Positions 6,786-24,602 are shown, counted from the first letter of the stretch. The stretch is DNA of 64,000 nt from Thermococcus gorgonarius (GCF_002214385.1 NZ_CP014855.1:1302001-1366000); one strand, 5' to 3'. The notes: generated by a model not told the origin, from the sequence alone. Numbers and translations: made by a program.

Positions 6786-7013
6786 ATGGCTGAGGAGAAG
6801 AAGTACACGACTGTTTCCATACCAAAGCCGCTCTATGACAAGATAAAGGCCAGGATAGAGGGCACCGGATTCACTTCGGTTTCCGACTACGTGACCTACG
6901 TTCTCCGCGAGGTTCTTGCTAGTTTAGAAGAGGAGGAGAAGGAGGAAGTCTTCACCGAGGAGGAGGAAGAAAAAGTCAAGGAGCGCCTCAGGGCACTCGG
7001 CTACCTCGACTGA
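6786..7013 (+). CDS. Ribbon-helix-helix (CopG-like) protein, candidate regulator
   Basis: A 75-aa protein with an N-terminal ribbon-helix-helix pattern: a beta strand YTTVSIPKPLYDKIK, then GFTSVSDYVTYVLREVL. A very acidic C-terminal tail follows (several EEE runs). RHH proteins bind DNA as dimers through the paired strands. The ATG at 6786 sits eight bases after GGAGG. It is the first gene of the sulfate-activation operon, with sat beginning 22 bases after its stop, so it may repress its own operon through the tandem repeats upstream. The acidic tail could instead mediate protein contacts. Role is inferred from position. Confidence 0.8.
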   Translation: MAEEKKYTTVSIPKPLYDKIKARIEGTGFTSVSDYVTYVLREVLASLEEEEKEEVFTEEEEEKVKERLRALGYLD

Positions 7014-7034
7014 TTTCATTTTTGGGTGATAACA

Positions 7035-8174
7035 ATGGTTTCAAAGCCCCACGGCGGCAAACTGGTCAGGAGGCTCGTTGCCGAGAGAACCCGCGAGAGG
7101 ATCCTGAGCGAGCAGAAAGAGTACCCGCGCGTTAACATCAACCACGGAAGGGCCATAGACCTCGAGAACATCGCCCACGGCGTCTATTCTCCGCTCAAAG
7201 GCTTTCTGACTAGTGACGACTTTCAGAGCGTCCTCGACCACATGCGCCTGAGCGACGACACCCCATGGACGATTCCGATAGTCCTTGACGTGAGGGAGAA
7301 GACCTTCGAGGAGGGAGACGCGGTTCTCCTCTACCACGATGGTTTACCGATAGCCAGGATGCATGTTGAGGAAATATACACCTACGACAAAAAAGAATTC
7401 GCCGTCAAGGTCTTCAAGACCGACGATCCAGCCCATCCAGGAGTGGCCAGGGTAATGGGCATGGGCGACTACCTCGTCGGCGGCGAGATAGAGCTCCTCA
7501 ACGAGCTGCCGAACCCCTTCGCCAAGTACACTCTGAGGCCGGTCGAGACAAGGGTCCTCTTCAAGGAGCTCGGATGGAAGACGATAGTGGCATTCCAGAC
7601 GAGGAACGCCCCCCACGTCGGCCACGAGTACGTCCAGAAAGCGGCCCTTACATTCGTCGACGGCCTCTTCATAAATCCGGTTCTCGGAAGGAAGAAGAAG
7701 GGCGACTACAGGGACGAGGTCATAATCAAGGCCTATGAAGCTTTATTCAAGCACTACTATCCAAAGGACGCCGCGACCCTCGCGACGGTCCGCTACGAGA
7801 TGCGCTACGCTGGCCCAAGGGAGGCGATTCATCACGCCATAATGAGGAAGAACTTCGGTGCGACCCACTTCATCGTCGGAAGGGATCACGCTGGAGTTGG
7901 CGACTACTACGGGCCATATGAAGCATGGGAGATGTTCGACAACTTCCCTGACCTCGGCATAACCCCGATGTTCATCAGGGAGGCCTTCTACTGCAGGAAG
8001 TGCGGTGGCATGGTCAACGCCAAGATATGTCCCCATCCCAAGGAGTTCCACGTCCACATAAGCGGCACCAAGCTCAGGAAGATGATAATGGCCGGCGAGC
8101 AGCCGCCGGAGTACATGATGAGGCCCGAAGTCTACGAGGTCATCCGGAGCTTTGAGAACCCCTTCGTGGAGTGA
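7035..8174 (+). CDS. sat: ATP sulfurylase (sulfate adenylyltransferase)
   Basis: A 379-aa monofunctional ATP sulfurylase making adenylyl sulfate (APS) and pyrophosphate from ATP and sulfate. The N-terminal PUA-like domain contains GVYSPLKGFLTSDDF. The nucleotide-binding site is seen as FQTRNAPHVGHEY and VGRDHAGVGDYYGPYEA. A cysteine-rich CRKCGGMVNAKICPH near the C-terminus matches the zinc-binding insert of thermophilic enzymes. There is no fused APS kinase domain; a separate kinase follows three genes on. The ATG at 7035 follows GGGTGAT; the GTG at 7026 overlaps that site. Confidence 0.96.
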   Translation: MVSKPHGGKLVRRLVAERTRERILSEQKEYPRVNINHGRAIDLENIAHGVYSPLKGFLTSDDFQSVLDHMRLSDDTPWTIPIVLDVREKTFEEGDAVLLYHDGLPIARMHVEEIYTYDKKEFAVKVFKTDDPAHPGVARVMGMGDYLVGGEIELLNELPNPFAKYTLRPVETRVLFKELGWKTIVAFQTRNAPHVGHEYVQKAALTFVDGLFINPVLGRKKKGDYRDEVIIKAYEALFKHYYPKDAATLATVRYEMRYAGPREAIHHAIMRKNFGATHFIVGRDHAGVGDYYGPYEAWEMFDNFPDLGITPMFIREAFYCRKCGGMVNAKICPHPKEFHVHISGTKLRKMIMAGEQPPEYMMRPEVYEVIRSFENPFVE

Positions 8175-8207
8175 TTTCCTCTCAAATTTTTATCCGGAGG
8201 AATGAGC

Positions 8208-9143
8208 ATGCACCTCATAGTTCACCACTGGGACACGGACGGGATAACCTCGGCTGCGCTTCTCGTGAGGGCCCTTGGGCTGGAGGAGTTCACAAACATA
8301 ACCGCCCCAATAGGCGAGTTCAGGTTTGATGAGAGGATATGGAACGCCATTGCAAGAGCGGAGACGCTCTACGTCCTCGACTTCAACGTGCCGAACGAGG
8401 TCGAGAAGGTAAAGATTCCGACCATCTTCATAGACCACCACACCCAGCCGAGAATCAAAAACCCCCTCGTGGAGCAGGTGAACCCCTCGCTGGAAGGCAA
8501 TTATTACCCCTCCAACTCCCTCGTCGTCTCGGAGTACTTTGGAATATGGAACGCGTGGAGCGCCCTCGGCGTCGTTGGCGACATCGGAGAGAAGGCCTTC
8601 GAGCTAGAGACCGTTAACGAACTCCTCCGGAAAGCGAGCCTATCGCGGGCGGAAGCCTTAAGGCTGGTAGAGCTAATCGACTCCAACTACATCGCGATGG
8701 AGAGGGAGGCCGTCGAGGGAGCGGTGACAGTTCTCCTTGAGAGCGAAATCAAAGACCTTCTCGAATACGAACCCTGGATCAAAAAAGCGGATGCGATAAA
8801 GGAGGCCATAGATGGCGCCCTTTCAAGCGTTGAGGAGAAAAACGGCTTTGCCTTCGTGGAGTTCGAGAGCCCGTTCAACATTATCTCCAAGGTCGCGAGA
8901 AAGCTCGTCTGGGAGATGGGCTATAGAGGAGCGGTCGTCGTAAACAGGAACTTCCACGGGAAAGCTCAGGTCTACTTCCGGATCTCCCCTGAGGAGGCGG
9001 AGAGGAGAGACATGGGTAAAGTCATCACTCGCCTTAGGGAGCTTGGAACGAACGCTGGCGGAAAAAGGGAGGTTCTCGGCTGCGTCTGTGAGAGGGATAA
9101 AATCGAAGACGCACTCGCAATCATTGAGGAATACCTGAGGTGA
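8208..9143 (+). CDS. DHH-family phosphoesterase, candidate PAP phosphatase or oligonucleotidase
   Basis: A 311-aa protein of the DHH superfamily. The N-terminal catalytic domain has HHWDTDGITSAAL and the signature IDHHTQPR. The C-terminal DHHA1-type domain has RELGTNAGGKREVLGC. Relatives include NrnA-type enzymes that hydrolyse 3'-phosphoadenosine 5'-phosphate (PAP) and nanoRNA, and archaeal RecJ-like nucleases. Its place between sat and APS kinase favours PAP turnover, since PAP is the by-product of sulfotransfer; that role is inference. Two ATGs compete: GGAGG is seven bases from the one at 8208 and only one base from the one at 8202, so 8208 is preferred. Confidence 0.85.
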   Translation: MHLIVHHWDTDGITSAALLVRALGLEEFTNITAPIGEFRFDERIWNAIARAETLYVLDFNVPNEVEKVKIPTIFIDHHTQPRIKNPLVEQVNPSLEGNYYPSNSLVVSEYFGIWNAWSALGVVGDIGEKAFELETVNELLRKASLSRAEALRLVELIDSNYIAMEREAVEGAVTVLLESEIKDLLEYEPWIKKADAIKEAIDGALSSVEEKNGFAFVEFESPFNIISKVARKLVWEMGYRGAVVVNRNFHGKAQVYFRISPEEAERRDMGKVITRLRELGTNAGGKREVLGCVCERDKIEDALAIIEEYLR

Positions 9144-9148
9144 GAGTT

Positions 9149-10579
9149 ATGGAGTTTGAAAAGAAGGTTAGGGAAGGAATGGAGAACACCAAGCGTGTCT
9201 TCGTCATAGGCCTTGATTCGGCCCCACCGGAGCTTCTGTTCAACCGCTTCATTGACGACATGCCCAACGTCAAGAGGCTCTTAGAGAAGTCCGTTTACGG
9301 CCCTATGCAGACCGGAATTCCTGCGATAACCATCCCGATGTGGATGGTGATGGTCACTGGAAAGACACCGGGCGAGCTCGGCCTCTACGGCTTCAGGCAC
9401 AGAACTGGCTATTCCTACACGGACTACTGGATAGCCCACAGCAGGAAGGTGAAGGAAAAGACACTCTGGGACTACCTCGGCGAGCGCGGGAAGGAGTCGA
9501 TAATAGTCGGCGTCCCGCCGACCTATCCGCCAAAGCCCATTAAGGGCCACCTCGTCAGCTGCTTCATAACCCCCGATGCCAGTGTCGACTACACATATCC
9601 CAAGGAACTCAAGGGCGAGATAGAGCGCCTCGTCGGCGAGTACATATTCGACGTCCCCTTCAGGAAGGAAGCCAAGGACGAGGTGAAAGAGGGCATCTGG
9701 GAGATGACGGAAAAGCGCTTTGAGGTGATAAGGTACCTCCTCCAGGAGAAGGACTGGGACTACTTCCACTTCGTCGAGATAGGCTTGGATAGACTCCACC
9801 ACGCCTTCTGGCGCTACTTCGATGAAAACCACCACCTCTACCCGGGCAAGGGCAACAAGTACGAAAACGTCATCCCTGACTACTACAAGCTTCTCGATAA
9901 GGAGATAGGCGAAACCCTCAAGCTCATAGACCTCGACGAGACGGCCGTCTTCATAGTTTCTGACCACGGAATAAAGGCCATGCACGGCAACTTCGCCGTG
10001 AACCAGTGGCTGGCCGAGGAGGGCCTGCTGAAGGTCAAGAACCCTGAGGTTCTCCACGACGGGAAGGTCAAGCGCTTCGAGCAGATTGAAGTCGACTGGA
10101 AGGAGACCACCGCCTGGGGATGGGGCGGCTACTACTCCCGCGTATTCCTCAACGTCCTCGGAAGGGAGAAGGAAGGGAAGATACCGCTATCGAAGTTCGA
10201 AAAGGTGAGGGATGAGATAGCGGAGCAGATAAAATCCATACGCGGCCCCAACGGAGAGACGTGGGACACAAAGGTGTTCTACCCCGAGGAAATCTATCCT
10301 GAGGCGAGGGGCAGCAAGCCGGACATAATGGTCTACTTCGACAACCTCAACTGGCGCGCGGCCGGAACCGTTGGACATCCAACCAACTACCTGCCGGAGA
10401 ACGACACCGGGCCTGACGATGCGAACCACTCCGAGTTCGGGGTGTTCTCAATGTACTTGCCCGGCTTCGACGAGAGCAGGGCAACTCAGCTAACCATCTA
10501 CGACTTCGCACCGACGATACTCCGGCTCTTTGGAATAGAGGAGCCGATAAAGGATATGCACGGGAGGAGCATCCTCTAA
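9149..10579 (+). CDS. Type I phosphodiesterase/nucleotide pyrophosphatase family protein
   Basis: A 476-aa alkaline-phosphatase-superfamily enzyme without an evident signal peptide, so probably cytosolic. The N-terminal metal site VFVIGLDSAPPELL, the nucleophile region GIPAITIPMWMVMVTGKTPG (a threonine is the expected nucleophile), and metal ligands in IGLDRLHHAFWRYFD, IVSDHGIKAM and a late GHPTNYLPEN region are present. Substrates of such archaeal enzymes include nucleotides and phosphodiesters. It is tightly packed in the sulfate operon (five bases after the DHH gene), so an adenylyl sulfate, PAPS or sulfate/phosphate ester substrate is plausible but unproven. The ATG at 9149 follows GAGGTGA. 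Confidence 0.85.
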   Translation: MEFEKKVREGMENTKRVFVIGLDSAPPELLFNRFIDDMPNVKRLLEKSVYGPMQTGIPAITIPMWMVMVTGKTPGELGLYGFRHRTGYSYTDYWIAHSRKVKEKTLWDYLGERGKESIIVGVPPTYPPKPIKGHLVSCFITPDASVDYTYPKELKGEIERLVGEYIFDVPFRKEAKDEVKEGIWEMTEKRFEVIRYLLQEKDWDYFHFVEIGLDRLHHAFWRYFDENHHLYPGKGNKYENVIPDYYKLLDKEIGETLKLIDLDETAVFIVSDHGIKAMHGNFAVNQWLAEEGLLKVKNPEVLHDGKVKRFEQIEVDWKETTAWGWGGYYSRVFLNVLGREKEGKIPLSKFEKVRDEIAEQIKSIRGPNGETWDTKVFYPEEIYPEARGSKPDIMVYFDNLNWRAAGTVGHPTNYLPENDTGPDDANHSEFGVFSMYLPGFDESRATQLTIYDFAPTILRLFGIEEPIKDMHGRSIL

Positions 10580-10629
10580 GCTTTCGTTTCCCCCATTCCA
10601 TCCAGCCTTTAGAATTGGAGGGAGCTGAA

Positions 10630-11175
10630 ATGACAGGACTCAAAAACCTCGAAAAAGGATTCACAATCTGGCTTACGGGGCCAAGCGGTGCCGGGAAGAC
10701 GACTCTGGCCGTTAAGCTGGCGAAAAGGCTGAGGGAGATGGGCTACCGCGTGGAGATACTCGACGGGGACACGATAAGGAAGACCCTCTATCCGGACCTC
10801 GGCTTCTCAAAGGAAGCGAGGGAGATGCACAACAGGGTTGTAATTCACATGGCCAAGCTCCTCAGCAGGAACGGCGTTATAGCGATAGTTTCCCTGATAT
10901 CACCGTACAGAGCGGTTCGCGAGTACGCTAGGAAGGAGATAGGGGACTTCATCGAGGTCTACGTCTACGCGCCCCTAGAAGTCAGGATCCAGCGCGACCC
11001 CAAGGGGCTCTACGCCAAGGCATTGAGGGGAGAGATAAAGGGCCTTACCGGCTACGACGGGGTCTACGAGGAGCCTGAGAACCCAGAAGTTACGGTGGAC
11101 AGCTCGAAGATGACCCCCGAGGAGGAAGTTGAAGCCGTCATAGCGAAGGCCCGCGAGATGGGCTACCTGCCCTGA
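10630..11175 (+). CDS. cysC: Adenylyl-sulfate (APS) kinase
   Basis: A 181-aa kinase that phosphorylates the 3' hydroxyl of APS to give PAPS, the donor for sulfotransferases. The P-loop GPSGAGKTT spans residues 17-25. LDGDTIRKTLYPDLGFS and the conserved SLISPYRAVREYAR loop match the family, as do YAKALRGEIKGLTGYDG and the C-terminal PENPEVTVDSS. The ATG at 10630 has GGAGGGAG upstream; a TTG at 10615 is less likely. No PAPS reductase or sulfite reductase is nearby, so PAPS is more likely used for sulfation than for sulfur assimilation. Confidence 0.95.
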   Translation: MTGLKNLEKGFTIWLTGPSGAGKTTLAVKLAKRLREMGYRVEILDGDTIRKTLYPDLGFSKEAREMHNRVVIHMAKLLSRNGVIAIVSLISPYRAVREYARKEIGDFIEVYVYAPLEVRIQRDPKGLYAKALRGEIKGLTGYDGVYEEPENPEVTVDSSKMTPEEEVEAVIAKAREMGYLP

Positions 11176-11196: not shown

Positions 11197-11934
11197 TTGG
11201 ATCCAACCTTCATCGGGCTGGGCTTTGTAGTGGGCTTTCTCGTCGGTCTTACGGGAGTTGGTGGTGGGGCGCTGATGACGCCCTCCCTAATATTCCTCGG
11301 CGTTGAGCCGCTGACGGCGGTCGGAACCGACCTCCTTTACGCCACGGTCACGAGGGTCTTCGGCGTCTTCTTCCACGGGAAGAAGGGCAGGATAAGGTAC
11401 GACATAGCACTGAGGCTCTTCGCTGGGAGCGTCCCTGCAATAATCCTCGGGGGAGTGCTCCTCCGCTGGATTAATAAGGAAGTCCTCAACAAGTACCTTA
11501 CCCTGCTCCTCGGTGTTATTCTGATAATGAGTGCAGTCCTGAGCCTTCTCAAGGGTGAAATCCACATTCCGATAAGACCCAGATGGGCCTATGTCTATCT
11601 GCTCGGCTTCGTGGTGGGCCTGACCGTCCAGTTCACCTCCGTTGGGGCAGGCGTTATAGTGAGCTTCACCCTCATGAACGTGGCCAGGCTCGAACCGAAG
11701 GAGGTGGTTGGCGTGACGATAACCTACGGCCTGGCCCTCTCAACTTTCAGCTTCCTGAACTATGCGAGCGTCGGGAGCGTCGATTATGGAATAGCGTCCC
11801 TCCTCATCCTTGGAACGGTTCCCGGAGTTTACCTTGGCACTCACGTGAGTAGAAACGCGGACGGGGCGAAGCTTAAAAAGGCGATAAACATCATAATCCT
11901 GCTGATAGGACTCTTCACACTGATGAGCAGATGA
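11197..11934 (+). CDS. TauE/SafE (TSUP) family permease, candidate sulfate/sulfite transporter
   Basis: A 245-aa integral membrane protein with about eight hydrophobic segments. The TSUP hallmark glycine-rich loops occur twice: GLTGVGGGALMTPSLIFLGVEPLTAVGTDL near the N-terminus (shown here only as the family pattern) and the second-half repeat QFTSVGAGVIVSF. Members move sulfur oxyanions or organosulfonates. It closes the sulfate-activation operon, 21 bases after APS kinase, so sulfate uptake or sulfite export are both reasonable. The start is TTG at 11197 behind a GGGAGGGAGGG ribosome site; no better ATG is near. Confidence 0.85.
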   Translation: MDPTFIGLGFVVGFLVGLTGVGGGALMTPSLIFLGVEPLTAVGTDLLYATVTRVFGVFFHGKKGRIRYDIALRLFAGSVPAIILGGVLLRWINKEVLNKYLTLLLGVILIMSAVLSLLKGEIHIPIRPRWAYVYLLGFVVGLTVQFTSVGAGVIVSFTLMNVARLEPKEVVGVTITYGLALSTFSFLNYASVGSVDYGIASLLILGTVPGVYLGTHVSRNADGAKLKKAINIIILLIGLFTLMSR

Positions 11935-12898: not shown

Positions 12899-13321
12899 CG
12901 AATGAACAGAGTAACGTTATCTACCATGTCTGGATTAGCTTGTCAACTTCACTCAGGATAACATCACTAACACACCAATACCAAGCCGTAGTGCTGCTCC
13001 ACGTGCCGGTAAACATAGAGGCCTTAGTTCAAGTTCAAGAGGACTAATACTCTCAGCATAGATCATCCCGAACAATGGCATGTCTGATTCCGCCTCTTCA
13101 AGGACGAGGACGAAGAACTAGAGCCTCCTCCACCGCGAGACAGGAACTACGACGATACAGACACCAAGAACCTGATCCTCAAAGCAGTAAATGGGAACGA
13201 TACAGCGCTTGAAGCTGAACGTTAAAGTCCGTTGAGAACTTGTGTAACCCTTCTAACTACGTTATAGTTATGTAATAGAATTTAGAATTGCTTATAAACC
13301 TTTGAGTACTATATAACAAGC
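12899..13321. other. Gene-poor stretch with short ORF remnants and the promoter of the next gene
   Basis: No full gene is seen. Two stop-terminated open stretches on the plus strand have coding-like composition but no start codon; the clearer one is listed separately at 13088. Near 13289-13297 a CTTATAAA TATA box lies about 28 bases before the next ATG, implying a leaderless transcript for the gene at 13322. Confidence 0.45.
13088..13225 (+). pseudogene. Probable 3' remnant of an unidentified gene
   Basis: A 45-codon open stretch follows an in-frame stop and has no start codon. It reads FRLFKDEDEELEPPPPRDRN and continues into an acidic-basic helix ending in NGNDTALEAER. Composition is protein-like, but I cannot name the parent. 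It may be the tail of a gene lost by deletion in this island. Confidence 0.3.
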
Positions 13322-15069: not shown

Positions 15070-15080
15070 TGGTGATTGAA

Positions 15081-15479: not shown

Positions 15480-17009
15480 ATGAGCGAGGCAAGCGAAGCT
15501 CTGCAGAAGATTGCAAGGGGGACCGGAATAGTTTTTGCCGGGACGGTTATCTCGATGTTCTTTGGATTTCTGAGCAGGGCGGTTATAGCGAGGTACTTCT
15601 CGACTGCAGAGTATGGAGTGTTTAATTTAGCTCTGACTGTTTTGAGCATCGCCCTTGTCCTTGCTACACTTGGCTTTCAGAACGGCCTGCCGAGGGAAGT
15701 TGCATTTTATAGAGAGAAAAAGCCTTCGAGGGTTAGAGATTTAATTTCGACAGCCTTGGTGATTGTTGCCGTGAACAGTTTTGCAATCATGATGCTCCTG
15801 ATTTTTGGTTCGGGCCTCATAGCTCAAGTGTTTAATGAAGAGAGACTAGTCTATTCTCTAAAAGTGATGGCTTTTGCCCTGCCGTTTTCGGCTTTAATTA
15901 GCGTGATGATTTCAATTTCCCGAGGCTTTGGGAGAGTAAGGGAGAAAGTATACTTTCAAAACGTAGTTTATCCTGTAATATGGCTGGTGTTAGTCATCTC
16001 ACTTGCTCTCCTTGACCTCCCATTCGCTTCCTTGTTCTGGGCATACGTCATCGCCCAGTTCTTGACATTCCTCACATTGATCTTTGAAACCTACAGGATT
16101 GAACTCTTTGGGTTCAGACCTTCTCTCGACGCTGGACTCGGGCGGAAGTTAGTTGCATTCTCCCTTCCTCTGATGTTTGTTGGAATACTGAACTTTCTGA
16201 TGACATGGACTGACACATTGATGCTTGGTTACTATAAAGGTTCCGAGGTCGTGGGGCTGTACAACGCTGCAACACCGCTGGCCAAACTGATTCCGACGTT
16301 TTTGAATTCTGCGGCTGTTATTTACTCCCCCATAGTCACCTCACTGTATGCTCAGGGGAAAATGGTAGAAATGAAAAGGGTCTACCAGGTGCTAACGAAG
16401 TGGGTATTTCTGCTGACTCTCCCGCTGTTTGCCCTCATGTTCCTCTTCCCGGAGGCCACGATATCGTTCATTTTTGGAGAGAAATATGTATCGGCAGCAC
16501 TCGCACTTCAGGTTCTTTCCCTGGGCTTTATGTTTCACACGTTTCTGGGGCTAAACGGCATGACGCTGATAGTTATCGGTAAGCCGAAGCTCAACATGAT
16601 CGGGGACACTTTTGCTGTGGTCTCGAACATTGCTTTGAACCTCGCTCTAATTCCCTCATATGGAATGGTTGGTGCTGCCGTTGCCACAGCAGTCTCTTAT
16701 TTTATCGCCAACGTGTTCAGGTCGTACTGGCTCTATAGGATGACAGGTATCCACCCATTTAGCTGGAGCTATGTGAAGCCCCTAGCTATAGGATTTGTTT
16801 TACTCGGAGCTATTAAGTGGCTGAGTCCCAATGTTCCCAATATATGGTACGCCTTCCTGGTTCTTCTGGTCTTTATGGGGGTTTATGCTGTTCTCGTCCT
16901 TCTCAGCAGGAGCATTGATAAAGAAGATATCGAGCTGTTGCTGGCTGTTGAAAAGAAGCTGGGGATTGATTTAGGAGTGATAAAGAGATTTTTGAAGAGG
17001 TTCGTTTAG
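15480..17009 (+). CDS. Polysaccharide/lipid-linked oligosaccharide flippase (Wzx/MATE-like)
   Basis: A 509-aa membrane protein with about 14 transmembrane helices, of the MOP flippase superfamily. It opens with KIARGTGIVFAGTVISMFFG, then SRAVIARYFSTAEYGVFNLA, the pattern typical of RfbX/Wzx proteins that move lipid-linked glycan units across the membrane. Charged loops such as REVAFYREKKPSRVRD separate the helices. It is the only plus-strand gene at the left edge of the polysaccharide locus and converges with the minus-strand glycan genes, whose last gene overlaps its end by four bases. Confidence 0.9.
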   Translation: MSEASEALQKIARGTGIVFAGTVISMFFGFLSRAVIARYFSTAEYGVFNLALTVLSIALVLATLGFQNGLPREVAFYREKKPSRVRDLISTALVIVAVNSFAIMMLLIFGSGLIAQVFNEERLVYSLKVMAFALPFSALISVMISISRGFGRVREKVYFQNVVYPVIWLVLVISLALLDLPFASLFWAYVIAQFLTFLTLIFETYRIELFGFRPSLDAGLGRKLVAFSLPLMFVGILNFLMTWTDTLMLGYYKGSEVVGLYNAATPLAKLIPTFLNSAAVIYSPIVTSLYAQGKMVEMKRVYQVLTKWVFLLTLPLFALMFLFPEATISFIFGEKYVSAALALQVLSLGFMFHTFLGLNGMTLIVIGKPKLNMIGDTFAVVSNIALNLALIPSYGMVGAAVATAVSYFIANVFRSYWLYRMTGIHPFSWSYVKPLAIGFVLLGAIKWLSPNVPNIWYAFLVLLVFMGVYAVLVLLSRSIDKEDIELLLAVEKKLGIDLGVIKRFLKRFV

Positions 17010-18349
17010 ACTTTGATTTTCGGGACTTTGGCAATGGTGGCTGTTTTCAGGAACTTCATGACTTCCTTTTTCAAATGCTTTACAACATCTTCTGTGACTT
17101 CTATGCCAGGATCGTATGAGATCACTTCATCAAACTTCCAGTCTGTGACGTTGAAAATGCCCTTGAAGTTCTTGTAGTAGACAGCTATGCGGTATTTTTC
17201 AAGCTCTCTTATTTTTTCAAGTTCTTCATGAGATAAATTCATCCTAGAATAATCTATATGAGTTCCATATACCTCTGAAAAAACAGTAGAAGAGTATAAT
17301 TTTTTATCATTGTAATACCTGCCCTCAGCCACATCTATTATCAGATCTCTGATCTTTGTGAGGCTTATATATCCATTTGAGCATTTCACAGGTTCAGATT
17401 CCCATGGATATTTTATCCATAGTGGAACCTGGATTAGCTCATCATACAAAAATGTGCCATGGTTTATCTTACCATGTTCCCCTAAGAGCTGGCCATGATC
17501 GCTAAGTATTATAACCAAGGAGTTGTCAAAGAGGCCCTTCTTCTTCAAAGCATTTAGCAATTTTGGTAGATTTTCAGAAAGGTATTTAATTTCCATCTCG
17601 TAACCTTTCTTATATCCAGTCACTATTTTCTCAGAGGGTTTTCCAACCCAACTTTTTACAGTCTGATAGTTTATCACTGAACTCTTAGGAAGTGTAGGAT
17701 AAGGTTCATGCATCTCCATCAAATTTATTGTCATAAACATTGGTGACTTAAATTTAAAAGAAGATATCCACTGTGTAAATTCTGATAATCCAAGATCAAG
17801 TGGCCATTTTCTTAATTTACCATATACCTTTAATGTGAGATAATTATCGAGAATTACTTTTTGTATGCTAGCTTTTAAGAGCAACAGAAACTCTCCATGT
17901 TCCAATAATTTGAAAGCTGTCTGAATTGAATTCGTAGATGAATATCGCTGGAGTTTTTTCGATTCACGCTTTGAAAGGATACGAGGAAATTTTTTAGTAG
18001 GAACTACTACCTTATCGAATCCTACAAATCCAAAGTATGGTGTTACAAACATATTTGCTGATAGTAAATAGTTAGAGTACCCCAAAAGTTTTAACTCCCT
18101 AGTGAGAATATTATTATGCAGTAATTTTACTTTATCACTCTTATACTTTTTTGTCTCATGTGCACCATGAAGTGCAGGATATAGACCAGTAAATATTGAT
18201 GCATGAGATGGTGTTGTCCACGGCGCGGGAGCTATTGTATTAGAATAATAATTGAATCCATACTTTTTCAATATGGGGTGTAGATATTTTTCCCCGTAGT
18301 CTTTGCGAAGTGTATCCAGGACTATTAAAATAATATTAGTGGCCTCCAT
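17006..18349 (-). CDS. Sulfatase-like protein of the alkaline-phosphatase superfamily
   Basis: A 447-aa enzyme with the sulfatase layout: an N-terminal metal site NIILIVLDTLRKDY, the nucleophile region APWTTPSHASIFTGLYPALHG, and C-terminal ligands LSDHGQLLGEHGKINHG. The sulfatase CxPxR formylglycine motif is absent; TTPSHAS occupies the site, so a threonine or serine nucleophile and a phospho- or phosphoglycerol-transfer role are possible as well as sulfate-ester hydrolysis. No clear signal peptide. The ATG at 18349 sits behind a G-rich ribosome site and overlaps the upstream glycosyltransferase gene by 14 bases, showing operon coupling. Confidence 0.82.
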   Translation of the reverse strand: MEATNIILIVLDTLRKDYGEKYLHPILKKYGFNYYSNTIAPAPWTTPSHASIFTGLYPALHGAHETKKYKSDKVKLLHNNILTRELKLLGYSNYLLSANMFVTPYFGFVGFDKVVVPTKKFPRILSKRESKKLQRYSSTNSIQTAFKLLEHGEFLLLLKASIQKVILDNYLTLKVYGKLRKWPLDLGLSEFTQWISSFKFKSPMFMTINLMEMHEPYPTLPKSSVINYQTVKSWVGKPSEKIVTGYKKGYEMEIKYLSENLPKLLNALKKKGLFDNSLVIILSDHGQLLGEHGKINHGTFLYDELIQVPLWIKYPWESEPVKCSNGYISLTKIRDLIIDVAEGRYYNDKKLYSSTVFSEVYGTHIDYSRMNLSHEELEKIRELEKYRIAVYYKNFKGIFNVTDWKFDEVISYDPGIEVTEDVVKHLKKEVMKFLKTATIAKVPKIKV

Positions 18350-19367
18350 CACAATTCCCCCCTAGTCTACCTCGAAGTTTTAAGTAAGTTTGATATAATG
18401 GAAGTAATAAGGGATAATAAAGAAATACTTTTGAAAGTAGCCATGATGAAATAGAGATAGCGGTTTTTAGATGAACTTTTTTTAGCATAGAACGTATTTT
18501 GGGATTTTTTAGGAGCTTATTGAAATATTGCAGATTACCATCGCAGCTACTAGCTATATATACCCTCCTAAGAATTCCAACTAACATATTTGGGATAAGT
18601 ATATTCCGAAGAATATCGAGTATATCCCCTGGAGCATTATGCTTTACCAGATAATGATAAACACGTTTTTGTGCAGATATCCATTCAAAATCTTTGACAC
18701 TATACGTATGGCTTAGTGAATTCCCCCGAACCCGGTAGAACGCCAAAACTTCGGAAACACAATCCACAATTTCAGCATGAAATAGCGCTTTGGATATAAA
18801 TTCAAAATCTTCCCCCCGAGAAATACCTTCAGGGAATTTTATTCTGTTTGATGTTATCAACTTTCTTTTATATATCGCTGAGTGAGTCCATATTCTGAGT
18901 TCTCTTTTTAGGAATTTCCTTAGTGCAGTAATCCCAGTAGATGGAGACAATGAGCATAAAGAGTGGGGCTTGTAACTCTTGAGAATCCCCTTTTCTGCAA
19001 CAATAGCGTATCCAAACAGTACTATATCAGCATTAGAGGAAACAGCCTGATTATAAGCTTTTTCTAGGCAGGTAGGGGTGATGTAATCGTCACCATCTAA
19101 AAAGTATAAATATTCTCCATTTGACAAACTGACACCTAAATTTCTAGCAGCACTGACTCCCGCATTAGGAGAGATAATAAGTTTCCATTCAAATGGGGCG
19201 TCTACTAGTCTTTCTTTTATTATCTCAACGGTACCATCAGTTGAACCTCCATCTATAAAAATTACCTCAAAGTTTCTAAAAGTCTGGTTCATTAGACTGT
19301 CAATAGTGTCCATTATGTACCTTTTGACATTTAAGGTTGGAATGACCACGCTAATTTTTGGTTTCAT
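18336..19367 (-). CDS. Family 2 glycosyltransferase
   Basis: A 343-aa GT-A fold enzyme. The N-terminus has ISVVIPTLNVKRYIMDTIDS, then FIDGGSTDGT, AARNLGVSLSNGEYLYFLDGDDYITP (family pattern, with DGDD as the nucleotide-sugar metal site). A helix-rich C-terminal half probably contacts the acceptor or membrane. It would add one sugar, identity unknown, to the lipid-linked glycan. It overlaps both neighbours (18336-18349 and 19364-19367), so it is part of the minus-strand operon. Confidence 0.88.
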   Translation of the reverse strand: MKPKISVVIPTLNVKRYIMDTIDSLMNQTFRNFEVIFIDGGSTDGTVEIIKERLVDAPFEWKLIISPNAGVSAARNLGVSLSNGEYLYFLDGDDYITPTCLEKAYNQAVSSNADIVLFGYAIVAEKGILKSYKPHSLCSLSPSTGITALRKFLKRELRIWTHSAIYKRKLITSNRIKFPEGISRGEDFEFISKALFHAEIVDCVSEVLAFYRVRGNSLSHTYSVKDFEWISAQKRVYHYLVKHNAPGDILDILRNILIPNMLVGILRRVYIASSCDGNLQYFNKLLKNPKIRSMLKKVHLKTAISISSWLLSKVFLYYPLLLPLYQTYLKLRGRLGGNCDGGH

Positions 19368-21046
19368 GGCAAAATCACCCCCACAGTACTACTTGTGTAA
19401 ACTTGTGTATATTTTACTTTGATTAGGGCAATATTGGAATAAGGCTGCAAGCCATAGTATTCAGAAGCGTGTTTAAATTTTGTTCCATAATATAGGTAGT
19501 TCCAATGTAGTCTTGGATACTGCAATACACCACCAGGAAATGAGAATTTACGGATATTTGTAGGATACTCCGAAGGATAAAGCTCTCTTGCGACTACAAC
19601 CTTGGAATAACCAGGTAATTTTTCGTTTCCAAAATATCCAGCAACCAAGAGTTGTTCGTCTTGAACGAAAAGTTGAGGCCCTACAGTCAGATTAGTCAGC
19701 TGATTGTAAGTATACATCACAGGAGCTATTATCAGGATAAGAACAGTAATTATTGAAATCCACCTATTTGATTTACTAGATAATACATACCTCGAAAACG
19801 GCATAAAAACTACCTGAAATACCCTCTGCCCAAGGAAGTTTGTGACCAATCCAACAACAAACAACGCCCCACTACTCACCAAGATGGAGATGTCAAATAT
19901 CAATTGGTATGGCAACTGTCCTTTCTCAATAGAGCGCTTAAGATACACGATAAATCCATACGTTGCAATTAACAGCAGGCTTATCAGGATGATCCTTAAA
20001 ATCCATGCCTGAAGTTCTACGATCCATTTAGGCACAAGCTCATAGTGTGGGTGAGGGGTGTATTTTATGGGGCCAAATGCTCCAGACTTCCGAAGAAATC
20101 TACCGAATATCCACCACGTCTCCCCTTCAACCTCACCCCATCTCTCGATGAGCGCTTTTAACGGAATAGAGAGGAGATTGTAGAATAACCATGTAAATCC
20201 CAACCCCCAAATTGACACAAGAAGACCGATAGTGGATGTCCTTAGATTTTTTTTATGGGGGGAGTAGTGGTTATACAGAACGATACCTCCAACAGGTAGG
20301 ATATAAAACAGGAACATAAATGGGTGAGTAAATACGAGGGCAAACCAGAACATCGCTAGAATCAGAAACTTCTTCAAATTCTGACCGTGATCTATAAAGT
20401 CGAAAGTGACCTTATACAGATATGGTAAAAATACAAGGGCAAGAGTTTGTGGAGCAACTTGATCGTTGATGACATAGAAAGATAGCATCATGTAGGTCAT
20501 AAGTGATATTACTGCGAACTTGATATCCCTTCCAAGTTTGCTGTAGTAGTATATCAAACCAACGTACAGTGCACTCATAAAAACAAATAGACCCACGGTG
20601 TATATGCTAATTTTTCCTATTCCACCGACTAATATAATTGAGGTTTCAAGGATGAACGAGATTGGATAGGAGAGGTATGAAAGAGAATAGGTAGCGAGTG
20701 CATCATGGGTTATTTTTCCTGTGGAGAGCATGAATTCTATTATATTAGACGGAAATATGTTTTCAACTTGTTCATAAGGAATTATAAAATACAAATTTGT
20801 CAAATAAAACAAAAGGCCATACATCAGCCCTAAAAGACTTACAGCGTACTTGCTGGTGTTTATGTAATATATTATTATCACTACGAGAACAACTGAATTT
20901 ACTAAGAGAAGAACCCAGTGCACCAATGGAATCGCGCTCAAAACATTGTCCCCCTTAGAGTACGAAAAGTGAGGTTGATTAATTATGTAGATTAGGATGA
21001 TTATGTATACAAATAATGAAAACAGTACTAATTGTATTTTTTTCAT
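19364..21046 (-). CDS. Large multi-spanning membrane protein, candidate glycan polymerase or lipid-linked glycosyltransferase
   Basis: A 560-aa membrane protein with about 12 hydrophobic segments starting at VLFSLFVYIIILIYIINQ. Extended loops include RWGEVEGETWWIFGRFLR and a C-terminal soluble part (YFGNEKLPGYSKVVVARELY). The topology resembles Wzy polymerases or GT-C enzymes such as oligosaccharyl or mannosyl transferases, but no STT3 WWDYG or DxD motif is clear. Its place between two glycosyltransferases supports glycan assembly at the membrane. The exact reaction is unknown. Confidence 0.7.
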   Translation of the reverse strand: MKKIQLVLFSLFVYIIILIYIINQPHFSYSKGDNVLSAIPLVHWVLLLVNSVVLVVIIIYYINTSKYAVSLLGLMYGLLFYLTNLYFIIPYEQVENIFPSNIIEFMLSTGKITHDALATYSLSYLSYPISFILETSIILVGGIGKISIYTVGLFVFMSALYVGLIYYYSKLGRDIKFAVISLMTYMMLSFYVINDQVAPQTLALVFLPYLYKVTFDFIDHGQNLKKFLILAMFWFALVFTHPFMFLFYILPVGGIVLYNHYSPHKKNLRTSTIGLLVSIWGLGFTWLFYNLLSIPLKALIERWGEVEGETWWIFGRFLRKSGAFGPIKYTPHPHYELVPKWIVELQAWILRIILISLLLIATYGFIVYLKRSIEKGQLPYQLIFDISILVSSGALFVVGLVTNFLGQRVFQVVFMPFSRYVLSSKSNRWISIITVLILIIAPVMYTYNQLTNLTVGPQLFVQDEQLLVAGYFGNEKLPGYSKVVVARELYPSEYPTNIRKFSFPGGVLQYPRLHWNYLYYGTKFKHASEYYGLQPYSNIALIKVKYTQVYTSSTVGVILP

Positions 21047-21061: not shown

Positions 21062-21937
21062 TTAACGTGGCCAACGTTCTTCAATTTTCATCATGTACGG
21101 CAATAGTGGGAAAGGAGCATGCTTCTTCGCCCAGAGCCACAGAGCGCTTTTTAAGGACAAATTTTGGAGGAGAAAGTCCATTTGGATATTAATTACTCCT
21201 TTGAGTCCCCATTTCTTCAGGAAGTACTCCTTTGAGCGTCTGTATCTCTCTTTACTAAACCGAAACTTTTTGTATGTTTTATTGCCACCGGGATAATGTT
21301 TAAACACCACGGCAGGAGTTACTGCAAATTTCCACTTGCCAAGTTGTTTATGTCCCCAGTAGAAATCAAGATGTTCAAAATTTATAACATAATTCTCATC
21401 CCATGTGTAATCTTTCAGAGCCTTCATTCTAAACAATGCAGAATTAGCAATAAAATCAAAATATATGTATGGAATTTCCCCGACAACTTCAAGTTTTTCT
21501 GGGACATATCGGATGAGATATCCGTTTTTATAAAACAAATTATGTCCTCCTCCACTTTTGATTTTTCCATACTCGTTCCAAATACCGGATACTCCTCCAA
21601 GCTTCTTATCTTTTTTTAGAATTTCCTTCAATAAAAACACGTTCTTGGGAACCACCATATCATCGTCTATAATTAGTAAATATTTTGTTCTACATCTTTC
21701 GACTATTCTGGCTCTTCCATATCCCAGCCCTGCATCATATGGAAGCTTTAGAACTTCTAACGGCAATAGCTCACTCATTGTTTCATAAATCTTTTCTTTT
21801 TGAGGGTCTTCCGGACCATCGTCTGCCACAATCACCTTTTTTACACCAAGTCCCACCAAAGATCTCAGGGTCATCTCAAGTTTTTCTGGTCGATAAAATG
21901 TCTTAAGCCCTACGGTAACATCATTGAGGTCTTTCAC
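21062..21937 (-). CDS. Family 2 glycosyltransferase, GT-A fold
   Basis: A 291-aa soluble transferase. DVTVGLKTFYRPEKLEMTLRSL opens the nucleotide-binding half (family pattern), followed by KVIVADDGP, and a strong metal motif LLIIDDDMVVPKN near residue 95. NFEHLDFYWGHKQLGKW resembles the catalytic acid region seen in GalNAc-transferase-like members. The C-terminus is basic and aromatic. Same orientation and operon as the flanking glycan genes, 15 bases before the membrane protein. Sugar specificity cannot be read. Confidence 0.85.
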   Translation of the reverse strand: MKDLNDVTVGLKTFYRPEKLEMTLRSLVGLGVKKVIVADDGPEDPQKEKIYETMSELLPLEVLKLPYDAGLGYGRARIVERCRTKYLLIIDDDMVVPKNVFLLKEILKKDKKLGGVSGIWNEYGKIKSGGGHNLFYKNGYLIRYVPEKLEVVGEIPYIYFDFIANSALFRMKALKDYTWDENYVINFEHLDFYWGHKQLGKWKFAVTPAVVFKHYPGGNKTYKKFRFSKERYRRSKEYFLKKWGLKGVINIQMDFLLQNLSLKSALWLWAKKHAPFPLLPYMMKIEERWPR

Positions 21938-21967: not shown

Positions 21968-23320
21968 TTAATCCATTGGAATCCTTTTAGACATACTTAA
22001 AGCGAATTCTGAGTTCTCCTCGAAGATCTCCCTCAACACTCTCCCATCTGTATCATTTGGAATTGGCAACCCAAATACGTGAAGGACTGTTGGGACTATA
22101 TCGTAAACCCTCGGAAGCTTCTCGAACTTTATGTCTTCCTTTATGTGTTTACCATAAGCTGAAAAGACACCGTGAATCTCATGATCTCCCTTGTAAGTTT
22201 TCTCCATAGGCCCTTTTCCCAGTTCATGGGAAAACTCAACCCCTTTCTCGGGAATTACGATGAGCTCGGGCATATTTTTCAAGTATGGGCCTTTGTGGAC
22301 CATGCCAAATTCAAGGACATCAAACACCTCTTCATACTCGCTTAGAGCCTTCATTATCTCCTTCTTTTTGCCCATGTTCCTCACATAAACCCCCCAGGTT
22401 GCTGGTTCTACCATAAACGCACTGGCATTTTGTGCTACATAATTCACAGCGCTTGATGATATCTTTGTTTTCTCTGTTATCCTGTTTAATATTTTTTTGG
22501 GTAGAGTTCTCTTAGCAATTTTAACTAACTTGGCCTTAGATTTCCTGTATTTTATAAATCCCTTTTCAGATAGAGCTTCATTTACGTAGAAGATTTTATT
22601 TTTCACTTCAAAGCCATGATCACTGACGATAAACATGACGTCGGAGACTGCCTGTGCAGTTTCTATGAACTTTTTAATAAGTCTAAAAGTAGGAGCGACA
22701 ATGTGGGTATCATTACCCTCCAAGATCTGGGGAAAGATATGAGAGAACCAGTCTATCTCGCTGAAGACTATAAAATACAGATTCCAATCCTGACGCTCCA
22801 GTAAATCGTAGTATAGACCCATCCTAGTTTCGGTATATTCCTTAACACGCTTCGGATACTCGCTCTTTTTGTGTTTTGACCACTCGTGAGGAGGGTCAAT
22901 TAAATACTCTGAATATTTTTTCTCAAGCTCTTCTGGATATATGGCCTGTTTTGGAGCAGCCCAATCAGAAACTATAATTGTGTTCTCTTTTTTTCGTATT
23001 CCATTAAATGGGTACGTCATTGGCAGGTTTATTAGAATGCTCTTTAAATTGGCTTCCTCAAGAATCTCTGTGAGTCGGGGATATTTCACGTCCCGCGAGG
23101 TTGCTAAACTTACTTTCCCACTTAACTTAGATACCTTCTGCCACCCTATTATTCCATGTTTTGCTGGATTGACTCCTGTTAGAATGGATGTCCATGATGG
23201 TGGTGTATACGGTGGGATTGTTGAAATAAAATCATGAAGTTGAGTGTCTACTCCAACTAACTTTGCGGTTGTTTTGTTTGCACCATCGAGGCCTATTACA
23301 ACTACTTTTTTGTTTTTCAT
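21968..23320 (-). CDS. Type I phosphodiesterase/nucleotide pyrophosphatase-like protein
   Basis: A 450-aa alkaline-phosphatase-superfamily enzyme: KVVVIGLDGANKTTAKL (first metal site), PPYTPPSWTSILTGVNPAKHG (nucleophile threonine or serine), FSEIDWFSHIFPQ, MFIVSDHGFEVKNKIF and a late DHEIHGVFSAYGK (histidine metal ligand). It resembles the phosphodiesterase in the sulfate operon more than true sulfatases and lacks a formylglycine motif. Being inside the polysaccharide locus it may remove or transfer a phospho or sulfo group on a glycan or nucleotide sugar. No signal peptide is evident. Confidence 0.82.
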   Translation of the reverse strand: MKNKKVVVIGLDGANKTTAKLVGVDTQLHDFISTIPPYTPPSWTSILTGVNPAKHGIIGWQKVSKLSGKVSLATSRDVKYPRLTEILEEANLKSILINLPMTYPFNGIRKKENTIIVSDWAAPKQAIYPEELEKKYSEYLIDPPHEWSKHKKSEYPKRVKEYTETRMGLYYDLLERQDWNLYFIVFSEIDWFSHIFPQILEGNDTHIVAPTFRLIKKFIETAQAVSDVMFIVSDHGFEVKNKIFYVNEALSEKGFIKYRKSKAKLVKIAKRTLPKKILNRITEKTKISSSAVNYVAQNASAFMVEPATWGVYVRNMGKKKEIMKALSEYEEVFDVLEFGMVHKGPYLKNMPELIVIPEKGVEFSHELGKGPMEKTYKGDHEIHGVFSAYGKHIKEDIKFEKLPRVYDIVPTVLHVFGLPIPNDTDGRVLREIFEENSEFALSMSKRIPMD

Positions 23321-23336
23321 AGCTCTTCCTCCTTAT

Positions 23337-23512
23337 TTAGCACCTTCATATAAATTCCAAGGCTCTTTTTTGCAATATTTTCTCAAGTAAACTGCTCCGC
23401 GTACTTCCTTATCTTCTTTCTGTCTCACTCATTCTCAAGGGTTATTAAAATTTTCTCCGCGAGACACACTCTGGATCAGTGGGAGGACACAGCAAACCGT
23501 ATTAAGCTTTCT
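23337..23512 (-). pseudogene. Decayed C-terminal fragment of a family 4 glycosyltransferase
   Basis: The minus strand closely matches the 3' end of the intact glycosyltransferase gene at 24604-25815. LLCPPTDPECV aligns with LLCPPADPECL, then after a frameshift KILITLENE-stop-DRKKIRKYAEQFT-stop aligns with the intact KILIALEKEWDREKIRTYAEQFKW. Both tryptophan codons have become TGA. No upstream part of the gene remains. It is either a partial duplicate or the scar of a related gene, between the phosphodiesterase and the sulfotransferase. Confidence 0.8.
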
Positions 23513-23576
23513 CAACGTTATACGTCATTTGCATTATTAGCTATTACTCTGTACTGATGCCTCAATTATCCTAACA

Positions 23577-24602
23577 TTATAGATATCCATATAACTCCAT
23601 GAACTCATTCAGTGTCCTTTCAACAAATTTAGCTTCCTCATCTGTAAGATCTCTTTTCCATCTTCCTAAATTACTCCTACTTAAATCTACCTTGAGCATG
23701 TTTTCATCAAATTCAATATTTAAGAATTCCGAGAGTTTACTCAGAGTTTTTTCCTTATTTTGTACTAACTCTTCCAAGGAGATCTCTAGATATTTATCAG
23801 TGTCTAACTTTTGTTTTTCTTCTTCCCATTTTTCAAGGATGAATTTTATGGTATGTGTCGCGTCTTCAACAGTGTTGCCTCCCCAATGTTTCGTCAAGTA
23901 AGAGGCAACAACATCCCGGAGATCACGATGAATATGGATGATCTTACAATCAGGGAACATTTCACAGAGCAATGATGCATGGAGAATATTTGTTGGAGTG
24001 TGATCAGCCCATATTTTCTTATTATACTTTCTAAGAATAGGCTGAAATAAAGAATTTACATAATTCCTTGAAATTCTAAATATCTCATCTCTTTTGAACC
24101 TCTTGGTCACGTATATCCTAGGCCTGAACCTAAATGAGGGAGTACCCAACCAAAATCCCTCAAATTCCCTAACTATTAAAGTATTGATAAATTCGTCTAA
24201 ACGTCTAAAATATTCAGTTCTAGATATGAATGGAGAAAACGGTGCACGGGCATAACTAAAAAATTCTTCTCCCCTCCATTGGCGAGCCATCGCATAAGTA
24301 TACTCAGGCGGGGAAATATGTAATTTGGGTAATATGAGGTATAGTCCTAGTCGGAGCTTATAATTAACTGAGCTCGGATAAAGTTTACTCATCAGTTGTC
24401 TAAACCTCTTTATAGCCAAATCAGACTTGTATTGGTCCCAGTACTCAGAAAGCGAAAGAGCCAGAGTTATAAGCCCATCTGGGTCCACAATAAACCTCGT
24501 CTCAAAGGGAAATACAAAAATATCTTTATGATATGATAGTATTCGTCCTAGTATCGTTGTTCCACTTCGCCCAGTTCCACCAATGAAGATCTGTTCGACC
24601 AT
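23577..24602 (-). CDS. PAPS-dependent sulfotransferase
   Basis: A 341-aa sulfotransferase of the Sulfotransfer_1/3 type, which moves sulfate from PAPS to an acceptor, here probably a sugar hydroxyl. The 5'-phosphosulfate loop GGTGRSGTTILG is at residues 8-19. The 3'-phosphate-binding motif IHRDLRDVVASYL lies near residue 225. The tail is helical (LSEFLNIEFDENMLKVDLS). The start at 24602 is preferred because GGAGGATGG lies just before it; the frame extends to 24617. It starts one base after the stop of a glycosyltransferase. It is the only candidate user of PAPS in the window. Confidence 0.9.
   Translation of the reverse strand: MVEQIFIGGTGRSGTTILGRILSYHKDIFVFPFETRFIVDPDGLITLALSLSEYWDQYKSDLAIKRFRQLMSKLYPSSVNYKLRLGLYLILPKLHISPPEYTYAMARQWRGEEFFSYARAPFSPFISRTEYFRRLDEFINTLIVREFEGFWLGTPSFRFRPRIYVTKRFKRDEIFRISRNYVNSLFQPILRKYNKKIWADHTPTNILHASLLCEMFPDCKIIHIHRDLRDVVASYLTKHWGGNTVEDATHTIKFILEKWEEEKQKLDTDKYLEISLEELVQNKEKTLSKLSEFLNIEFDENMLKVDLSRSNLGRWKRDLTDEEAKFVERTLNEFMELYGYL

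What the first reader, a model, noticed from the sequence alone, without database searches (positions are those of the whole stretch)
6786..24602. Sulfate activation without reduction, linked to a sulfotransferase in the surface-glycan locus
The sequence shows Sat, APS kinase, a DHH phosphoesterase, a phosphodiesterase and a TSUP permease in one operon (6.8-11.9 kb), with no APS/PAPS or sulfite reductase. About 12 kb away a sulfotransferase with intact PAPS-binding motifs sits among glycosyltransferases. Known chemistry says sulfotransfer consumes PAPS and releases PAP, and some DHH proteins degrade PAP. The inference is a dedicated archaeal pathway for sulfated surface glycans: activation, transfer and by-product removal. 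This is the best candidate here for a poorly described system.
Basis: partly seen in the sequence, partly recalled or inferred. Interest (0 to 1): 0.78.

Follow-up and report, generated by a model that had tools for sequence, protein, structure and literature searches.

The report
Sulfate activation feeding surface-glycan sulfation
A heat-loving archaeon carries, side by side, a known gene set that activates sulfate and a surface-sugar factory with candidate sulfate-attaching enzymes, and across 74 related genomes the two sets come and go together, so these archaea probably decorate their surface sugars with sulfate.

Summary
The operon is a 75-aa RHH-like gene, then Sat, DHH phosphoesterase, PF01663 enzyme, APS kinase and TauE/TSUP. 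A lone PF13469 sulfotransferase with intact PAPS-site motifs lies about 12 kb away in a glycan locus.

What I add is the link to glycans. In 12 of 33 operon loci (32 relatives plus the window) a polysaccharide flippase starts inside the TSUP stop codon (4-nt overlap), and several carry sulfotransferases within 4 kb. Sulfite reductase (PF01077) is absent from 93 of 94 Thermococcaceae. PF01507 "PAPS reductase" proteins are in all 94 genomes, 35 of which lack a Sat match.

The locus also holds sulfatase-fold proteins with Thr in place of the sulfatase Cys/Ser. They occur in 37 of 53 Sat+ and 0 of 21 Sat- good genomes; with PAPS sulfotransferases, 45/53 versus 0/21. The association survives phylogenetic pairing (p about 0.008). 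In Halobacterium salinarum two alkaline-phosphatase-superfamily proteins sulfate the N-glycan.

Best reading: a dedicated PAPS-for-glycan-sulfation unit with two candidate sulfotransferase classes. No glycan chemistry was tested.

The parts
6786..7013 (+). 75-aa ribbon-helix-helix-like putative regulator at the head of the operon (the position of copG/PYCH_17520 in P. yayanosii)
   Evidence: Sequence and position; no Pfam or NCBIfam match; cluster described in PMC8268124
7026..8174 (+). Sat, ATP sulfurylase (makes APS and PPi)
   Evidence: PF01747 5.5e-93, PF14306; TIGR00339 and NF003166 above cut-off
8202..9143 (+). DHH-family PAP phosphatase (PAP to AMP and Pi)
   Evidence: PF01368; full-length match to the solved M. 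thermolithotrophicus PAP phosphatase 8A8K, E 3.2e-118, with HHWDTDG, IDHH and VGDIG conserved; activity of orthologues in PMC8268124 and PMC10322725
9140..10579 (+). PF01663 alkaline-phosphatase-superfamily protein, most likely the inorganic pyrophosphatase (TON_1705 / PYCH_17550 orthologue)
   Evidence: PF01663 1.9e-49; recurs in the operon loci; pyrophosphatase assignment cited in PMC4463584
10615..11175 (+). APS kinase (makes PAPS)
   Evidence: PF01583 1.4e-59; TIGR00455 above cut-off
11197..11934 (+). TauE/SafE (TSUP) permease, probable sulfate or other sulfur-oxyanion transporter
   Evidence: PF01925 3.4e-44; in 33 loci
15480..17009 (+). Wzx/MATE-like polysaccharide flippase; last gene of the sat operon in many relatives
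   Evidence: PF01943 1.9e-30, PF13440; 4-nt overlap with TSUP in 12 of 33 operon loci; here separated from TSUP by 3.5 kb of extra ORFs
17006..18352 (-). Sulfatase-fold protein with no evident membrane anchor, Thr at the nucleophile position (WTTPSH); candidate second class of sulfotransferase
   Evidence: PF00884 1.7e-19; D13, T46, H50, D285, H286, H298 invariant in 13 sequences; all 40 genomes with a match are Sat+
18336..19367 (-). Family 2 glycosyltransferase
   Evidence: PF00535 3.1e-31
19364..21046 (-). 560-aa multi-span membrane protein, possible polymerase or GT-C-like enzyme
   Evidence: No Pfam match; hydrophobic sequence
21062..21937 (-). Family 2 glycosyltransferase
   Evidence: PF00535 3e-11
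21968..23320 (-). Second alkaline-phosphatase-superfamily protein of the glycan locus; candidate sulfo- or phosphotransferase
   Evidence: PF01663 4.9e-22; close relatives (57-73% identity) found only in Sat+ genomes
23577..24617 (-). PAPS-dependent sulfotransferase; its start overlaps the end of the upstream glycosyltransferase
   Evidence: PF13469 2.3e-27, PF00685 2.4e-11; PAPS motifs; only one in the genome
24604..26996 (-). Two family 1/4 glycosyltransferases (24604-25815 and 25794-26996)
   Evidence: PF00534, PF13692
27032..29703 (-). Sugar-nucleotide genes: hexapeptide acyltransferase, GFO/IDH/MocA oxidoreductase, DegT aminotransferase (an acetamido-sugar pathway, inferred)
   Evidence: PF00132, PF01408, PF01041
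30244..32401 (-). Family 2 glycosyltransferase and NAD-dependent sugar epimerase/dehydratase closing the locus
   Evidence: PF00535 1.9e-30; PF01370 1.5e-57

Best explanation
This is one functional unit for sulfating a surface glycan. TSUP probably imports sulfate. Sat makes APS and the PF01663 enzyme destroys the PPi; APS kinase makes PAPS. Transferases in the cytosol move the sulfo group to the lipid-linked glycan being built by the glycosyltransferases: the PF13469 sulfotransferase (23577-24617) and, probably, the Thr-nucleophile sulfatase-fold protein (17006-18352). The DHH enzyme removes PAP. The Wzx-like flippase (15480-17009) exports the sulfated glycan. Shown: gene content, catalytic motifs, synteny, phyletic co-occurrence, absence of sulfite reductase. 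Shown by others on orthologues: PAP phosphatase and pyrophosphatase. Inferred: sulfate import, the sulfo acceptor, sulfation by the sulfatase-fold protein, cytosolic order of events, and whether the product is an N-glycan, lipid glycan or exopolysaccharide.
For: Sat, DHH, PF01663, APSK and TSUP families each occur in 33 loci (relatives plus the window). The flippase overlaps the TSUP stop by 4 nt in 12 of 33 operon loci, and several carry sulfotransferases 1.5-3.6 kb from the operon. Sat: 59/94 Thermococcaceae, 53/74 good genomes. Sulfotransferase profile A1: 22/22 matching good genomes are Sat+. Sulfatase-fold profile A2: 37/37 are Sat+, 0/21 Sat- genomes match. Either: 45/53 vs 0/21, Fisher 2.8e-12. 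Independent pairs on a 74-genome tree: same direction in 7.7 of 9, opposite in 0, median p 0.0078. Within flippase-bearing genomes: 42/47 vs 0/7, p 4.5e-6. PF01077 in 1/94. PF01507 in 94/94 whether or not Sat is present. DHH matches a proven PAP phosphatase, 3.2e-118.
Against: No glycan from this organism has been examined. Eight good Sat+ genomes have neither transferase class. The flippase is itself commoner in Sat+ genomes (47/53 vs 7/21), so part of the co-occurrence is joint gain or loss of one locus. The PAPS sulfotransferase taken alone is not significant on the tree (median p 0.25). A few of the counted matches are fragments or weak. The acceptor could be a lipid, protein or small molecule. 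The held paper on archaeal alkaline-phosphatase-superfamily sulfotransferases does not establish their sulfo donor.
Confidence: 0.8

Rival explanations
1. Assimilatory sulfate reduction: PAPS made here is reduced to sulfite and sulfide for cysteine, as proposed for T. onnurineus, with a PF01507 protein as PAPS reductase.
For: The published label of the cluster is assimilatory sulfate reduction; PF01507 proteins are present (5 matches in this genome); DHH PAP phosphatases do serve a reductive pathway in M. thermolithotrophicus.
Against: Sulfite reductase domain PF01077 is absent here and in 93 of 94 Thermococcaceae, while it rings in 11 of 14 control genomes. PF01507 proteins are in all 94 genomes, 35 of which have no Sat match, so they are independent of PAPS supply. 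The putative T. onnurineus reductases were not seen in its proteome. Sat tracks glycan-locus transferases instead.
Confidence: 0.08
2. PAPS is used for sulfation of something other than a surface glycan (lipid, protein tyrosine, small metabolite), and proximity to the glycan locus is incidental.
For: The acceptor is untested. The weak PDB matches of the window sulfotransferase are mainly protein-tyrosine sulfotransferases, E 0.003-0.006, short segments only.
Against: The sulfotransferase overlaps a glycosyltransferase gene; the operon is coupled to a polysaccharide flippase in many genomes; relatives' sulfotransferases sit in glycan loci.
Confidence: 0.1
3. The sulfatase-fold proteins are glycan phosphotransferases or hydrolases that work on the same glycan but do not transfer sulfate; only the PF13469 enzymes do.
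For: A Thr nucleophile is typical of phosphodiesterases and LtaS-type phosphotransferases (established knowledge); weak LtaS match.
Against: Complete restriction to Sat+ genomes (40/40), including genomes with no PF13469 gene; no strong PF00884 match in any Sat- genome; H. salinarum Agl30 and Agl31, of the same superfamily, are needed for N-glycan sulfation and confer it on Hfx. volcanii.
Confidence: 0.4
4. Co-occurrence reflects only physical linkage: one hypervariable surface locus is gained and lost as a block.
For: 15 of 19 genomes with measurable distance have the sulfatase-fold gene within 20 kb of sat; the flippase also tracks Sat.
Against: In four of these genomes the gene is 154-302 kb from sat. 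Seven Sat- genomes keep a strong flippase relative yet have none of the transferases, 0/7 against 42/47.
Confidence: 0.15

Closest known systems
Thermococcales sulfate-assimilation cluster (P. yayanosii PYCH_17520-17560, PMC8268124; T. onnurineus TON_1704-1707, Lee 2009 as cited in PMC4463584)
   Same: Same gene content and order: RHH/copG-like gene, sat, DHH PAP phosphatase, PF01663 pyrophosphatase, apsK, adjacent TauE. PMC8268124 remarks that other archaea have a sulfotransferase gene next to it.
   Different: Those papers read it as sulfate assimilation or reduction and found no sulfotransferase in P. yayanosii. The passages read do not describe the flippase coupling, the glycan locus, the sulfatase-fold genes or family-wide co-occurrence.
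Halobacterium salinarum Agl30/Agl31 (VNG1056C/VNG1057C), N-glycan sulfotransferases of the alkaline-phosphatase superfamily (PMC11980604)
   Same: Archaeal glycan-locus proteins of the same superfamily as window 17006-18352; one of the two is soluble, as this one appears to be.
   Different: Direct homology was not tested (their sequences were not to hand). The sulfo donor is not addressed in that paper. No sat operon link is described. H. salinarum is a halophile with a defined tetrasaccharide.
PAPS-dependent carbohydrate sulfotransferases (PF13469/PF00685)
   Same: Window 23577-24617 has the family's profile match and both PAPS-binding motifs.
   Different: Archaeal hyperthermophile member in a glycan locus; acceptor unknown.
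Archaeoglobus fulgidus lipid-linked oligosaccharide with 0 or 1 sulfate group (PMC8342417)
   Same: Precedent for a sulfated lipid-linked oligosaccharide in another hyperthermophilic euryarchaeon.
   Different: That paper concerns the oligosaccharyltransferase structure, not the sulfation genes; the Thermococcus glycan is unknown.

Membership tests
Published Thermococcales sat/pApase/PPase/apsK cluster | sat, DHH, PF01663 and apsK genes adjacent, same strand | tested here: met
   each family in 33 loci
Published Thermococcales sat/pApase/PPase/apsK cluster | Adjacent TauE gene | tested here: met
   PF01925 3.4e-44
Published Thermococcales sat/pApase/PPase/apsK cluster | Leading copG-like gene | tested here: inconclusive
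   RHH-like 75-aa ORF at 6786-7013 by sequence and position only, no HMM match
DHH-family archaeal PAP phosphatase (MtPAPP, PyapApase) | Full-length similarity with the metal-binding motifs DTD, DHH and the distal Asp | tested here: met
   8A8K 3.2e-118 over residues 3-310; HHWDTDG, IDHH, VGDIG conserved
DHH-family archaeal PAP phosphatase (MtPAPP, PyapApase) | Hydrolysis of PAP to AMP and Pi | not testable with these tools
   Shown for orthologues (PMC8268124, PMC10322725)
PAPS-dependent sulfotransferase (PF13469/PF00685) | Profile match above curated cut-off | tested here: met
   97.1 bits vs 27; 43.9 vs 22
PAPS-dependent sulfotransferase (PF13469/PF00685) | 5'-PSB loop and 3'-phosphate-binding Arg/Ser | tested here: met
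   GTGRSGTT; R231 and S239 invariant in 19 sequences
PAPS-dependent sulfotransferase (PF13469/PF00685) | Sulfo transfer from PAPS to an acceptor | not testable with these tools
   Needs an enzyme assay
Classical formylglycine sulfatase (S1, PF00884) | C/S-x-P-x-R nucleophile motif | tested here: not met
   Thr in place of Cys/Ser and His in place of Arg in window 17006-18352; T46, P48 and H50 invariant in 13 sequences
Agl30/Agl31-type alkaline-phosphatase-superfamily sulfotransferase | AP-superfamily fold and metal ligands in a glycan-locus protein | tested here: met
   PF00884 match; D13, D285, H286, H298 invariant
Agl30/Agl31-type alkaline-phosphatase-superfamily sulfotransferase | Homology to Agl30/Agl31 beyond the superfamily | not tested
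Agl30/Agl31-type alkaline-phosphatase-superfamily sulfotransferase | Required for glycan sulfation | not testable with these tools
   Only phyletic linkage to Sat shown
Assimilatory sulfate reduction pathway | Sulfite reductase in the genome | tested here: not met
   PF01077 0 matches in this complete genome, 1/94 in the family

The most novel reading that the evidence does not exclude
Thermococcales make sulfated surface glycans with two unrelated classes of cytosolic sulfotransferase fed by one PAPS operon. The commoner class is a Thr-nucleophile, sulfatase-fold (alkaline-phosphatase-superfamily) enzyme that runs sulfatase-like chemistry in the synthetic direction from PAPS or APS, similar in kind to Halobacterium Agl30/Agl31 and so possibly a widespread archaeal mode of sulfation.
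Probability: 0.45. Interest if true: 0.75.

Novelty: new variant of a known kind. Interest (0 to 1): 0.58.

Why it matters
For over 15 years this operon has been read in Thermococcales as assimilatory sulfate reduction, although the last step is missing. The evidence here redirects it to glycan sulfation and names testable transferases. If the sulfatase-fold proteins do transfer sulfate, it would extend the 2025 Halobacterium result to hyperthermophiles, tie it to a PAPS source, and warn that archaeal genes annotated "sulfatase" in glycan loci may be sulfotransferases. Sulfated surface glycans would also bear on how hyperthermophiles keep charged, stable surfaces.

Tried and rejected
Sulfate reduction to sulfide: rejected on PF01077 absence and PF01507 universality. 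A lone accidental sulfotransferase: rejected, because relatives carry sulfotransferases next to the operon. Classical formylglycine sulfatase for 17006-18352: rejected on motif. Lee 2009 and a paper on archaeal lipid-linked oligosaccharides are not held; they are cited only through PMC4463584 and PMC8342417. Paper searches for an existing Thermococcales glycan-sulfation link found none; that library is limited to open-access papers. A first tree had one wrongly chosen ORF (G020) and was redone.
Full report
OBSERVATION. The window is bases 1302001-1366000 of a complete, 1.674 Mb genome of the Thermococcaceae (family identified from the named relatives). The operon is real. A 75-aa ribbon-helix-helix-like ORF (6786-7013) is followed by Sat (7026-8174), a DHH protein (8202-9143), a PF01663 protein (9140-10579), APS kinase (10615-11175) and a TauE/TSUP permease (11197-11934), all on the + strand with short gaps or overlaps. 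The sulfotransferase at 23577-24617 matches PF13469 at 2.3e-27 and PF00685 at 2.4e-11. It carries GTGRSGTT, and its R231 and S239 are invariant in an alignment of 19 Thermococcaceae sequences. It is the only gene of either family in the genome.

A Wzx-like flippase (15480-17009, PF01943) ends where the glycan operon of the opposite strand ends. That glycan operon holds two alkaline-phosphatase-superfamily genes: 17006-18352 (PF00884 Sulfatase) and 21968-23320 (PF01663). The rest is glycosyltransferases, a multi-span membrane protein and sugar-nucleotide genes.

WHAT IS ALREADY KNOWN. The operon is published. In P. yayanosii it is copG, sat, pApase, PF01663, apsK with a neighbouring TauE gene; the DHH protein was crystallised and shown to hydrolyse PAP (PMC8268124). 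In T. onnurineus the PF01663 protein (TON_1705) is called pyrophosphatase and the DHH protein (TON_1706) PAP phosphatase, after Lee 2009 (PMC4463584; the original is not held). The window DHH protein matches the solved Methanothermococcus PAP phosphatase 8A8K at 3.2e-118 with its metal-binding motifs intact. Both papers frame the cluster as sulfate assimilation; PMC8268124 notes that other archaea have a sulfotransferase next to it but that none was found in P. yayanosii.

WHY NOT REDUCTION. Over 94 Thermococcaceae genomes the sulfite/nitrite reductase domain PF01077 occurs in one, not this one, while it rings in 11 of 14 control genomes. PF01507 "PAPS reductase" proteins are in all 94 genomes, including the 35 with no Sat match, so they are not linked to PAPS supply. 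The missing last step and the untied reductase argue against sulfide production.

LINK TO THE GLYCAN LOCUS. I read 40 loci from relatives and called and clustered their ORFs. Sat, DHH, PF01663, APSK and TSUP families each occur in 33 loci, counting the window. The flippase begins within the last four bases of the TSUP gene in 12 of 33 operon loci; in this window the two are separated by 3.5 kb of extra ORFs. Several relatives have a PF13469-type sulfotransferase within 4 kb of the operon. A Thorarchaeota contig (L107) also has sat, apsK and a sulfotransferase in a row.

CO-OCCURRENCE. Among 74 genomes at least 90% complete and at most 5% contaminated, 53 have Sat. A profile of 19 sulfotransferases matches 22, all Sat+. 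A profile of 13 proteins like 17006-18352 matches 37, all Sat+; none of the 21 Sat- genomes has one. Matches were counted at E 0.001 or better, so a few are fragments or distant. All strong PF00884 matches are also in Sat+ genomes; the weak ones in Sat- genomes mostly coincide with a PF01663 protein that the whole family shares. Either class: 45/53 against 0/21, Fisher 2.8e-12. Because genomes are related, I built a tree on a protein found in all of them and compared independent pairs that differ in Sat: transferase presence goes the same way in 7.7 of 9 pairs and never the other way, median p 0.0078. The sulfatase-fold class alone gives p 0.016; the PAPS sulfotransferase class alone is not significant (p 0.25). 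This is a quick one-gene tree. As a control, the flippase also tracks Sat (47/53 vs 7/21), so part of the signal is joint inheritance of the locus; but among flippase-bearing genomes the contrast stays 42/47 vs 0/7, p 4.5e-6, and in four genomes the sulfatase-fold gene lies 154-302 kb from sat.

THE SULFATASE-FOLD PROTEINS. They keep the superfamily's metal ligands but have Thr where sulfatases need Cys or Ser for formylglycine, and His for the following Arg (WTxPSH in this window). No membrane anchor is evident in the sequence. In H. salinarum, two proteins of this superfamily, annotated as sulfatase-like, are the N-glycan sulfotransferases: deletion affects sulfation of specific sugars and expression in Hfx. 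volcanii leads to sulfation of its glycan (PMC11980604). By analogy, not by tested homology, the Thermococcus proteins are candidate sulfotransferases. This would explain many Sat+ genomes that lack a PF13469 enzyme. Of the eight good Sat+ genomes with neither class, two (G034, G074) have a close relative of the second alkaline-phosphatase-superfamily gene, 21968-23320.

MECHANISM. Sulfate enters (TSUP, inferred); Sat makes APS and PPi; PPi is removed; APS kinase makes PAPS; cytosolic transferases sulfate the growing lipid-linked glycan; PAP is removed by the DHH enzyme; the flippase exports the glycan. A sulfated lipid-linked oligosaccharide is documented in Archaeoglobus fulgidus (PMC8342417). 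Glycan type, sulfated sugar and transferase roles are inferred.

VERDICT. New here, as far as the held literature shows, are the operon-flippase-transferase neighbourhood, the family-wide co-occurrence and the sulfatase-fold candidates. Confidence 0.8 for PAPS feeding glycan sulfation; about 0.45 that the sulfatase-fold proteins are the commoner sulfotransferases.

Noticed in passing
L107:2852-5722: A Candidatus Thorarchaeota contig carries sat, apsK and a sulfotransferase (profile E 9e-20) in a row.
   Followed up: partly
L105:478-4580 onward: A Methanocaldococcaceae MAG contig carries the whole sat, DHH, PF01663, apsK, TSUP set at 52-83% identity to the window.
   Followed up: no
G009, loci L079 and L080: This genome has two APS kinase copies in two clusters about 27 kb apart; the second cluster keeps TSUP, apsK and PF01663 only, next to a flippase relic and sulfatase-fold genes.
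   Followed up: no
G000:C1:1223120-1223650 and equivalents: A roughly 640-aa PF01507 (PAPS_reduct) protein occurs in nearly every Thermococcaceae genome, Sat+ or Sat-; its function is unlikely to depend on this PAPS supply.
   Followed up: partly
G093:C38:1712-2884: The only Thermococcaceae genome of 94 with a sulfite/nitrite reductase gene (569-aa frame, two PF01077 domains).
   Followed up: no
window 12275-15370: Extra ORFs (one with a weak helix-turn-helix match) separate TSUP from the flippase here but not in many relatives; likely an insertion.
   Followed up: partly
cluster 14, e.g. L094:3493-4359 and L057:6099-6965: A third, short (about 288 aa) alkaline-phosphatase-like protein with SDHGMEP...GGDHSDHGFF recurs in 12 of the sat-linked or glycan loci; function unknown.
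   Followed up: no
G078:C1:1824240-1824368: A Sat- genome holds a truncated APS kinase remnant with an internal stop, suggesting decay of the operon.
   Followed up: no
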